This document shows, in pieces, positions 2,947-34,158 of a stretch of DNA of 40,447 nt. Position 1 is the first letter of the stretch. Each line of letters opens with the position of its first letter. Position numbers and translations under genes: made by a program. Origin of the DNA: a virus; the IMG/VR virus record IMGVR_UViG_3300040770_000214, positions 1 through 40,447 of that record, one strand, 5' to 3'. The notes beneath the pieces were generated by a model. That model saw nothing but the letters and a program-made list of their open reading frames with translations, had not been told where the DNA came from and made no database searches.

Positions 2947-3166
2947 AAAAAAGGTCGCCAAATAGCGCACAAGAGCATCGAGGTTGATCGTAAAAATGTA
3001 GGCGATATAATATATGAAGAAAATTAGTTTGTAGCTTAGAGACCTCCTGGTGGAGATCGCTGAGAGCGTTTTAGGCACATTTTAACAGTTTCTGCCATAC
3101 TGTCATGTTTATTATATGATGCCCTAAAAGAGCCTATTTCGCATTGACTTCGTCAACTGAAACGCG
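2947..3166 (-). ncRNA. Candidate phage small RNA
   Basis: Leftward from a perfect -7 box (TAAATTTG at 3180-3173) lies about 220 bases with no reading frame but several helices. These are GUUGAC/GUCAAU (3157-3143, GAA loop), a stem of 3129-3120 with 3077-3069 (one bulge) enclosing ACAGU/ACUGU (3103-3099 with 3089-3085), and a 7-bp GAUCUCC/GGAGGUC hairpin (3058-3041, loop ACCA, one G-U pair). The last is a closing stem UCGCC/GGCGA (3005-3001 with 2959-2955) followed after two C by six U at 2952-2947. The stretch is visibly richer in G and C than its flanks. Promoter, folded body and terminator in order support a real RNA. Its target is unknown. Confidence 0.55.
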
Positions 3167-31432: not shown

Positions 31433-31966
31433 ATGGCAACAAAAGTTATTACAGGGAAAGTTCGCTTTTCATTTCCACACGTTTTCGAACCTTCAGGCAT
31501 GGAAGGTCAAAAAGAGAAATACAGTGTTTCATTAATCATCCCTAAAACTGATGAGAAAACATTAGCTGAAGTTAGAGCAGCTATTGATGAAGCATTAGAA
31601 GCAGGTAAAGCAGGTAAATTCGGTGGTAAACTACCTCCAGTTTTCAAGAACCCATTAAGAGATGGTGATGCTGAAAGACCAGATGATGAAGCATACAAGA
31701 ACTCATTTTTTGTTAATGCAAACTCTGACAACAAACCTGGTGTAGTTGATGCTTCAGTAAAACCAATTCTTGATAGAGACGAGTTCTATGCAGGTTGTTA
31801 TGGTAGAGCAGGTATAACATTCTATGCATTCAATTCTAATGGTAACAAAGGTGTTGCATGTGGATTACAGAATGTACAGAAACTAACTGATGGTGATAGG
31901 CTTTCAGGTGGTTCATCTGCTGCAGAGGACTTTGGTGCTCCAGTAGCCGGTGATGATTTAATGTAA
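31433..31966 (+). CDS. Single-strand DNA-binding-like protein (DUF2815 type)
   Basis: A 177-residue protein with the DUF2815 layout: ITGKVRFSFPHVFEPS at the N-terminus, an EKYSVSLIIPK strand, a DGDAERPDDEAYKNSFFVNA loop, DRDEFYAGCYGRAGITFYAF, and GVACGLQNVQKLTDG. It ends in an acidic tail (EDFGAPVAGDDLM) as in T7 gp2.5-type single-strand-binding proteins. It probably coats replication intermediates and recruits polymerase. It has its own promoter box and terminator, and its codons are more uniform than those of its neighbours, consistent with high expression. Confidence 0.82.
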   Translation: MATKVITGKVRFSFPHVFEPSGMEGQKEKYSVSLIIPKTDEKTLAEVRAAIDEALEAGKAGKFGGKLPPVFKNPLRDGDAERPDDEAYKNSFFVNANSDNKPGVVDASVKPILDRDEFYAGCYGRAGITFYAFNSNGNKGVACGLQNVQKLTDGDRLSGGSSAAEDFGAPVAGDDLM

Positions 31967-32043: not shown

Positions 32044-32052
32044 ATTTTATAA

Positions 32053-32165
32053 GGGGAAGTAGCTCAATTGGTAAGAGCCAAAAAATCTACTAGTAGTGCG
32101 CACTACATAATCTTAATTGATTTTGGTAGTAATAAGGGTTAGCGGTTCGAGTCCGCTCTTCTCCA
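32053..32165 (+). ncRNA. tRNA-like RNA with oversized anticodon domain
   Basis: The two ends fit a tRNA exactly. The acceptor is GGGGAAG (32053-32059) with CTTCTCC (32158-32164, one G-T pair), followed by T8 and A9. The D arm is GCTC/GAGC (32062-32065 with 32075-32078) with AATTGGTAA loop. The T arm is AGCGG/CCGCT (32141-32145 with 32153-32157) with loop TTCGAGT. Discriminator A is at 32165 and no CCA is encoded. But 62 bases lie between D and T arms instead of about 23. They form AAAATC/GATTTT (32082-32087 with 32119-32124) around a perfect palindrome GTAGTGCGCACTAC (32094-32107). No ordinary 7-base anticodon loop is evident. Confidence 0.6.
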
Positions 32166-32187: not shown

Positions 32188-34158
32188 ATGCAAAATAAGT
32201 TACACATAGATATAGAGACTTACAGTCCTATAGACTTAAAAACATCCGGTGTTTATAAATATGCTGAGTCACCAGAGTTTGAAATACTCACACTTAGTTA
32301 TGCATTAAATGATGGTCCTATAATTGATGTGCCTTTAGCTTTAGGTGCACAATTACCTTATGAATTTATAGACCATTGTGGTTCAGCTAATACACTTAAA
32401 TTAGCTCATAATGCTTTGTTCGAAAGAACTTGTTTAGCTGCAATAGATTTGATTATACCTCCTGAAGAGTGGGAGTGTACAGCTATTAAGGCTTCATATT
32501 GTGGTTTACCTGCTAGCTTAGAAGCTGTTTCTGAAGCATTGAAACTTGGAGACAAATCTAAATCTGCTTCAGGTAAAGCATTAATTAAATTCTTCTGCAT
32601 ACCTAAGTCAGATGGCACAAGAAATATGCCAGAAGATCACTTAGAAAAGTTTCAAGAATTGGTAGATTATTGTAATCAAGACGTTGTAGCTGAAATGGCT
32701 ATAGACGATAGATTATGTATGTATGATGTTTGTCAATTCGAAAGAGATAACTATTTTTTAGACCAACATATAAATGATAGAGGTATAAAAGTTGATTTAC
32801 AATTTGCTAAAGCTGCTTATGAATTAGATTTGGGATTCAAAGTTAAAGCCATAGATAGAATGAAGCAAATAACTGGCTTATCAAATCCAAACAGCCCTAA
32901 GCAACTTACAGACTGGTTGAATGCTGCTCAAAAAGACGTTACAGTTAAATCAATAGCAAAAGAAAATTTACAAGGTTTATTAAAAGTTGCTTCAGGGCCT
33001 GTTTTGGAAATATTAGAATTACGAGCTGCAACATCAAAAACATCTACTGCAAAGTATGTTGCTATGTTATCATCAGCATGTAAGGATGATAGTATTAGAG
33101 GTTGCTTCCAATTTTATGGGGCTAATAAGACTGGTAGATGGGCAGGGAGAATTGTACAATTACAAAATCTACCAACTAATAAATTTCTTGTTGATAATAG
33201 TGATGAGGACTCAATTGACATTGCTAGAAACATTGTTGCACAAAATGATTTAGAGCTAGCAGAAATGGTTTATGGTTTTAAAATACCACAAGTACTATCT
33301 GAATTAATTAGACCAGCATTTATAGCTAGAGATGGTTTAACCTTTGCTGTTTCAGATTTCTCTGCAATTGAAGCAAGGGTATTATCATGGTTAGCATCAG
33401 AAGCATGGCGTATGGAAGTATTTGCTACTCATGGTAAGATTTATGAAGCAGCTGCATCAGCAATGTTTAATGTACCTATTGAACAAGTTACTAAAAACTC
33501 TGAATATAGAATGAGAGCCAAAAATGCTGAGTTAGCCTTAGGTTATCAAGGTGCATTAGAAGCTATGAGAAGAATGGGTGGTGAGAAAATGGGTTTATCT
33601 GATTCAGAAATGAATGACCTAGTAAAATTATGGAGGAAAGTAAATCCTAAAGTAGTTAAACTATGGAATGAATTTAATGACTATGCTATTGAAGCTGTTA
33701 TGACTATAGGTACTAGAATAGAAACAGGTTACAGAAATGTTGCATTCTTATCAGATGGTTTAATACTAAAAATGATTTTACCTTCAGGTAGATGTATATC
33801 ATATTTTGAACCTCACTTAAAGACAAACCGTTTTGGCTCTGCATGTATAAAATACAAAAACATCGACCAGAAAACAAAGAAATGGTGGGACACAGAGACT
33901 TATGGTGGTAAACTAGTTGAGAATGCAGTACAAGCTATATCAAGAGATGTATTAGTACACTCAATGCAGAATTTGGCTAATAATGGTTTTGACATTAATA
34001 TGCATGTTCATGATGAGGTTATATGTGAAGTTCCAGAGAATGAAGGTGAAGAGCAATTAGTTATAATGGAGAATATAATGAAGCAAAATATACCTTGGGC
34101 TCCAGATCTAATTCTAGGTGCAGCAGGGTATGTAACCAAATACTACAAAAAAGATTAA
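32188..34158 (+). CDS. Family A DNA polymerase with 3'-5' exonuclease
   Basis: The phage replicative polymerase, 656 residues. Exonuclease motifs are DIET (8-11), HNALFE (74-79) and YCNQD (161-165). The polymerase has TGRWAGRIVQLQNLP (315-329), motif A SDFSAIEAR (389-397, Asp390), motif B RMRAKNAELALGYQG (441-455), where an Arg and a Lys would bind the nucleotide, and motif C HVHDE (606-610). There is no 5'-3' exonuclease domain. The motif A variant SAIEAR is typical of phage polymerases in this module. It is encoded just upstream of the primase-helicase. Confidence 0.92.
   Translation: MQNKLHIDIETYSPIDLKTSGVYKYAESPEFEILTLSYALNDGPIIDVPLALGAQLPYEFIDHCGSANTLKLAHNALFERTCLAAIDLIIPPEEWECTAIKASYCGLPASLEAVSEALKLGDKSKSASGKALIKFFCIPKSDGTRNMPEDHLEKFQELVDYCNQDVVAEMAIDDRLCMYDVCQFERDNYFLDQHINDRGIKVDLQFAKAAYELDLGFKVKAIDRMKQITGLSNPNSPKQLTDWLNAAQKDVTVKSIAKENLQGLLKVASGPVLEILELRAATSKTSTAKYVAMLSSACKDDSIRGCFQFYGANKTGRWAGRIVQLQNLPTNKFLVDNSDEDSIDIARNIVAQNDLELAEMVYGFKIPQVLSELIRPAFIARDGLTFAVSDFSAIEARVLSWLASEAWRMEVFATHGKIYEAAASAMFNVPIEQVTKNSEYRMRAKNAELALGYQGALEAMRRMGGEKMGLSDSEMNDLVKLWRKVNPKVVKLWNEFNDYAIEAVMTIGTRIETGYRNVAFLSDGLILKMILPSGRCISYFEPHLKTNRFGSACIKYKNIDQKTKKWWDTETYGGKLVENAVQAISRDVLVHSMQNLANNGFDINMHVHDEVICEVPENEGEEQLVIMENIMKQNIPWAPDLILGAAGYVTKYYKKD

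What the first reader, a model, noticed from the sequence alone, without database searches (positions are those of the whole stretch)
32053..32165. tRNA-like gene with an extra 39 bases in the anticodon domain
Acceptor, D and T arms are canonical, so the gene arose from or mimics a real tRNA. The anticodon region is replaced by a longer stem holding a perfect 14-base palindrome. No ordinary anticodon is visible. Possibilities are an inactive tRNA with an insertion, an intron needing removal, or a tRNA mimic that acts on host RNases, synthetases or tRNA-targeting defences.
Basis: partly seen in the sequence, partly recalled or inferred. Interest (0 to 1): 0.72.

Follow-up and report, generated by a model that had tools for sequence, protein, structure and literature searches.

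The report
Phage tRNA-like RNA lacking an anticodon
A bacterial virus carries, just before its DNA polymerase gene, an RNA shaped like a transfer RNA but with the codon-reading arm replaced by unrelated sequence, and many other viruses carry similar "tRNAs without an anticodon", so this looks like a widespread, little-noticed class of viral RNA rather than a broken gene.

Summary
Window 32053-32165 (+) has a perfect acceptor stem (G3:U70, A73), D arm and T arm (Rfam tRNA, 42.3 bits). A 62-nt domain replaces the anticodon arm, and plain ARAGORN finds no tRNA. The record is a virus resembling Bacteroidota phages. The element lies between the ssDNA-binding-protein and DNA polymerase A genes, 22 nt before the polymerase ATG.

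It is not a lone oddity. In homologous phages the same intergenic region carries tRNA-like elements in 13 of 96 testable regions (shuffles: 0.08); most lack a canonical anticodon arm. Pattern scans of viral contigs found many tRNA-likes with that arm deleted or replaced. In the arm-deleted set, selected only on D- and T-loop sequence, 37 of 45 keep a paired acceptor stem (3.1 expected), with 34 different sequences. Only 2 of 396 genomes of one Flavobacteriaceae-centred order match that pattern.

Best reading: a non-decoding tRNA-like RNA cut out of the phage transcript by host RNase P and RNase Z (as human mascRNA is), also separating two messages. Processing and function are inferred. An intron, simple decay and a palindrome-based function are poorly supported.

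The parts
32053..32165 (+). whole tRNA-like element, 113 nt
   Evidence: Rfam RF00005, 42.3 bits, complete model
32053..32059 (+). acceptor stem, 5' strand GGGGAAG
   Evidence: 7/7 pairs with 32158-32164
32062..32078 (+). D arm: stem GCTC/GAGC, loop AATTGGTAA
   Evidence: 4/4 pairs
32079..32140 (+). 62-nt domain in place of tRNA positions 26-48; no anticodon arm
   Evidence: best anticodon arm 1 of 5 pairs; ARAGORN plain mode none
32087..32129 (+). predicted 6-bp helix (32087-32092/32124-32129) closing two hairpins
   Evidence: constrained fold; not more stable than shuffles
32093..32106 (+). 14-base perfect palindrome GTAGTGCGCACTAC
   Evidence: sequence; single copy in window
32141..32157 (+). 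T arm: AGCGG TTCGAGT CCGCT
   Evidence: 5/5 pairs
32158..32165 (+). acceptor stem, 3' strand CTTCTCC, then discriminator A; G3:U70; no CCA encoded (next bases CAA)
31433..31966 (+). upstream gene: ssDNA-binding protein (Enc34_ssDNA-bd)
   Evidence: PF10991, E 1.2e-72
32188..34158 (+). downstream gene: family A DNA polymerase; ATG 22 nt after the element
   Evidence: PF00476

Best explanation
The element is a non-decoding tRNA-like RNA of tRNA-Ala ancestry, transcribed as part of the message that runs from the ssDNA-binding-protein gene into the DNA polymerase gene. Host RNase P cuts at 32052/32053 and RNase Z after 32165; both need mainly the acceptor stem, T arm and D/T elbow, which are intact. 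Excision releases a 113-nt RNA (probably CCA-tailed by the host enzyme) and splits the transcript into an ssDNA-binding-protein message and a polymerase message that starts about 22 nt before its ATG. Because nothing reads the anticodon, that domain is free to be deleted or replaced. Shown: the pairing potential, its maintenance across many phages, and the recurrent position. Inferred: transcription, the cleavages, CCA addition, and that excision is what selection maintains.
For: Acceptor, D and T arms perfect while the anticodon domain is gone. The same SSB-pol interval carries tRNA-like elements of differing type in 13 of 96 testable homologous regions against 0.08 in shuffles, on the coding strand, several ending 11-39 nt before the polymerase start (window, L379, L387, L438, L012, last element of L383). 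L379 there has no anticodon arm at all. In viral contigs, 37 of 45 arm-less elements keep acceptor pairing (3.1 expected), with 34 different acceptor strands; discriminators vary and G3:U70 is rare, which fits an enzyme that reads shape rather than a synthetase. CCA is encoded in 2 of 37 arm-less elements against 17 of 48 normal-length ones, as expected for RNase Z substrates. mascRNA is a known case: elbow mimicry suffices for RNase P and RNase Z, and it is not charged (PMC11693755).
Against: No transcript or end data. Other phages of the group have no tRNA-like there, so the cut is not essential. Some phages carry two or three elements in one noncoding stretch (L382, L383, L386, L541), and L011 and L250 have about 560 nt between element and polymerase; neither is needed for simple message cutting. 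In the broad set, gene starts are not enriched just downstream. The free minimum-energy fold does not form the D arm.
Confidence: 0.45

Rival explanations
1. A trans-acting tRNA mimic: the excised RNA occupies a host tRNA-handling factor (for instance alanyl-tRNA synthetase, EF-Tu, CCA-adding or tRNA-modifying enzymes, or a tRNA-sensing defence), and the phage keeps it for that purpose; the variable domain may tune the target.
For: G3:U70 and A73 kept in window, L222, L282, L343, Danklef, L011 and L250; AlaRS needs no anticodon (established knowledge). Arrays of elements without genes between them. Gain and loss between sister phages Danklef and Freya, as for accessory or anti-defence genes. 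Concentrated in viruses (against 65).
Against: No partner known; acceptor identities differ between phages in the same gene position; only 3 of 37 arm-less elements have G3:U70.
Confidence: 0.28
2. A relic: phage tRNA genes that lost decoding and are drifting, kept for a while because acceptor and T arms still fold.
For: Mixed clusters with ordinary-looking tRNAs (L384, L541); element absent in many relatives and in Freya.
Against: Decay should hit all arms; instead acceptor stems stay paired through many compensatory differences in 37 of 45 arm-less elements, and the tRNA body is almost identical in window, L282, L343 and L222 while the insert is not. 26 of 37 arm-less loci have no ordinary tRNA nearby.
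Confidence: 0.15
3. A translational tRNA whose insert is spliced out, or which decodes with an unusual anticodon domain.
For: Intron-mode ARAGORN returns tRNA-Asn(ATT) with a 30-nt intron; L011 and L250 keep TTGCAA, as in a tRNA-Ala(UGC) loop.
Against: Intron mode also calls a tRNA in 198 of 200 shuffled inserts; no Rfam intron match; close relatives have inserts of other lengths and sequences, and one has no arm.
Confidence: 0.07
4. The palindrome is the working part: an operator in DNA or a homodimerising RNA loop, with the tRNA body as scaffold.
For: Perfect 14-base palindrome (p about 0.008 in shuffles); L381 carries a 20-base one at the equivalent place.
Against: No second copy in the window even with 3 mismatches; without window and L381 the other polymerase-linked elements show no significant excess of palindromes (Fisher p 0.17); the arm-less members have none.
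Confidence: 0.05

Closest known systems
tRNA-OTHER of Polaribacter phage Danklef (annotated, undetermined anticodon)
   Same: identical acceptor GGGGAAG/CTTCTCC and nearly identical D and T loops; a gene starts 14 nt downstream
   Different: 58 nt with no anticodon arm; follows an intrinsic terminator and lies upstream of the terminase genes, not of the polymerase
mascRNA / menRNA (MALAT1 and MEN-beta 3' tRNA-likes)
   Same: tRNA-shaped, no usable anticodon, acceptor and T arm kept; works as an RNase P/RNase Z site (PMC11693755)
   Different: human nuclear long noncoding RNAs; D arm reduced there, intact here; processing shown there, only inferred here; no common descent claimed
tmRNA (tRNA-like domain)
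   Same: G3:U70 alanine acceptor, anticodon arm replaced
   Different: no tag frame, true D stem here; permuted-tmRNA model only 15.3 bits against a cut-off of 47
tRNA-Other of Bacillus cereus
   Same: pseudo-tRNA acting outside translation, next to a mobile island (PMC3399842)
   Different: keeps a Trp anticodon and is chromosomal
ROOL and GOLLD RNAs
   Same: phage noncoding RNAs often near tRNA islands (PMC12286853)
   Different: far larger; no Rfam match in the window or in the noncoding stretch beside L011 and L250

Membership tests
tRNA (decoding) | acceptor, D and T arms | tested here: met
   all pairs formed
tRNA (decoding) | 5-bp/7-nt anticodon arm with U33 | tested here: not met
   best candidate 1 of 5 pairs; ARAGORN none
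intron-containing tRNA | a removable insert that restores a canonical arm better than chance | tested here: not met
   198 of 200 shuffles also give an intron-mode call
tmRNA | match to a tmRNA model | tested here: not met
   15.3 bits, cut-off 47
tmRNA | tag reading frame | not tested
   no start or tag-like frame sought systematically; Danklef relative has no room for one
RNase P/RNase Z-processed tRNA-like (mascRNA type) | acceptor/T helix and D-T elbow kept, anticodon arm dispensable | tested here: met
RNase P/RNase Z-processed tRNA-like (mascRNA type) | cleavage at both ends and CCA addition | not testable with these tools
   needs RNA end mapping or in vitro cleavage
alanine-accepting tRNA mimic | G3:U70 and A73 | tested here: met
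   sequence; same in L222, L282, L343, Danklef, L011, L250
alanine-accepting tRNA mimic | actual alanylation | not testable with these tools
   needs an in vitro charging assay

The most novel reading that the evidence does not exclude
Phages encode a large, undescribed class of non-coding RNAs built on a tRNA body with the anticodon arm deleted or replaced. These act in trans on host tRNA-handling enzymes or tRNA-sensing defences, with the variable domain setting the target.
Probability: 0.2. Interest if true: 0.85.

Novelty: new variant of a known kind. Interest (0 to 1): 0.62.

Why it matters
Annotation leaves these elements out or mislabels them ('none', 'tRNA-OTHER'), and the searches of the paper library made here found no description of them as a class (most subscription journals and all preprints not covered). 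If phages routinely keep tRNA bodies without an anticodon, then some phage tRNA genes have nothing to do with codon usage. End-mapping of infected-cell RNA would directly show whether host tRNA-maturation enzymes cut phage messages or release tRNA-shaped effectors.

Tried and rejected
Intron reading: intron-mode ARAGORN calls are uninformative (198 of 200 shuffles). tmRNA: below cut-off. Palindrome as a general feature: only window and L381 are clearly significant; the rest Fisher p 0.17, and the palindrome is not repeated in the genome. Selected insert fold: z -0.3. A first constrained fold placed the T stem one base off; one search replaces it. Terminator directly upstream of the window element: a U-run is present but the scan found none and the fold is not exceptional, although L222, L282 and Danklef do have one. 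Gene-start excess downstream in the broad set: not found. Attachment-site origin: not favoured, since a complete paired 5' half is kept and no integrase was recognised by eye in the window's ORF list. Rfam match for the conserved noncoding stretch after the tRNA-like in L011 and L250: none.

Full report
1. Observation. Window 32053-32165 (+) matches the Rfam tRNA model over its full length at 42.3 bits. Acceptor GGGGAAG/CTTCTCC, D arm GCTC/GAGC and T arm AGCGG/CCGCT all pair completely. Positions 26-48 of a tRNA are replaced by 62 nt without an anticodon arm, and plain ARAGORN reports nothing. The acceptor carries G3:U70 and A73, the alanine identity elements (established knowledge). CCA is not encoded. 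With the three arms forced, the insert folds as a 6-bp helix closing two hairpins, the first being the 14-base palindrome. This is 2.1 kcal/mol above the free minimum, which does not form the D arm.

2. Setting. The window is a 40,447-base virus record. Its polymerase is closest to those of Bacteroides and Croceibacter phages (49% and 48%). The element lies between an Enc34-type ssDNA-binding protein (PF10991) and a family A DNA polymerase (PF00476). It is on the same strand as both and ends 22 nt before the polymerase ATG.

3. Same place in relatives. Homologues of the polymerase were fetched from viral contigs, phage records and genomes. A search of the region between the preceding gene and the polymerase for a T arm plus a pairing acceptor gave hits in 13 of 96 testable regions, with 0.08 expected from dinucleotide shuffles. 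Two more (L375, L377) were seen by eye. The elements include Croceibacter phage P2559Y (L011), L250, Bacteroides phage BF503P2 (L012), and L379, which is 57 nt with no anticodon arm. Of 17 elements examined in detail, only four have an anticodon arm with at least four of five pairs. Their acceptors and tRNA types differ, so the position and the tRNA shape persist while the identity turns over. Other phages of the group have only a hairpin there, so the element is optional.

4. A class. Selection did not use the acceptor, yet 37 of 45 distinct arm-less elements have at least six of seven acceptor pairs (3.1 expected when partners are dealt anew), with 34 different 5' strands and all four Watson-Crick pairs at nearly every position: covariation on a large scale. 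Discriminators vary, G3:U70 is rare, and CCA is encoded in 2 of 37 (17 of 48 for normal-length tRNAs). 26 of 37 loci have no ordinary tRNA nearby. In 396 genomes of the order centred on a Flavobacteriaceae genome the arm-less pattern occurs twice, and only one of those keeps acceptor pairing, so the class is concentrated in viruses. The two samples are not matched in size or host, so this is qualitative. Lactococcal P335-type phages carry a 61-nt arm-less element that is unannotated in most of the records listed.

5. Closest relatives by sequence. L222, L282, L343 and Polaribacter phage Danklef share the tRNA body almost letter for letter with the window, while the middle is unrelated or, in Danklef, absent. 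In these phages the element follows a small, apparently secreted protein gene and a terminator-like hairpin and lies upstream of the terminase genes (genes of the contigs judged by eye). In the sister phage Freya the block of gene plus terminator plus tRNA-like is replaced, with the right boundary within a few bases of the tRNA-like 3' end. L540 and L541 carry further tRNA-likes in the same noncoding island.

6. Mechanism. RNase P and RNase Z recognise the elbow and measure along the acceptor/T helix; mascRNA shows that a tRNA-like without a usable anticodon is processed and not charged (PMC11693755). The window element has what these enzymes need and lacks what the ribosome needs. I therefore favour excision from the message, giving a discrete RNA and separating the ssDNA-binding-protein and polymerase messages (0.45). 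Arrays of elements and gain and loss between sister phages leave a trans-acting tRNA mimic as a serious rival (0.28). Decay (0.15), splicing or decoding (0.07) and a palindrome-based role (0.05) are less likely, for the reasons given under the rivals.

7. Novelty. tRNA-like RNAs outside translation are known: mascRNA, tmRNA, and Bacillus cereus tRNA-Other, which keeps an anticodon (PMC3399842). A phage class lacking the anticodon arm, with a preferred place in front of DNA polymerase in one phage group, was not found described in the library searched. The paper on Danklef and Freya counts one tRNA for Danklef and none for Freya; the passages read say no more about it (PMC8776804). I rate the finding a new variant of a known kind.

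Noticed in passing
L377, just upstream of the polymerase start at 3001: A tRNA-like with a 5-bp anticodon stem and an 8-nt loop TTTTCAGG, which might read a UGA or a four-base codon.
   Followed up: no
L011 2444-3000 and L250 9485-10050: About 560 nt of noncoding DNA between tRNA-like and polymerase with conserved blocks (94% over the first 103 nt) and no Rfam match; possibly a new structured RNA.
   Followed up: partly
L148, L192, L253, L294, L308, L349, L357: Recurrent long-insert tRNA-like family with GAGCA.GTAAA, a hairpin and ACAGCAA in place of the anticodon arm.
   Followed up: no
L189, L202, L218, L224, L227, L236, L244, L248: Second recurrent family with TCATGGTGAAGGACCAAA...GGGTAAACC in place of the anticodon arm.
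   Followed up: no
L265, L278, L296, L333: tRNAs with a second T-arm-like hairpin, closed by a short stem, nested in the anticodon loop; perhaps an insert that is itself a tRNA-enzyme substrate.
   Followed up: no
L010 2601-3070 against Freya L534 652-1020: A block of small secreted-protein gene, terminator and tRNA-like in Danklef is replaced by another gene in Freya; the junction falls at the tRNA-like 3' end.
   Followed up: partly
L098 and L124: An arm-less tRNA-like directly after a hairpin that follows a capsid-like gene, 25 nt before the next gene in L098.
   Followed up: no
Lactococcus phages TP712, bIL309, P335, D2544: Unannotated 61-nt arm-less tRNA-like; downstream of the lysin gene in bIL309 and D2544.
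   Followed up: partly
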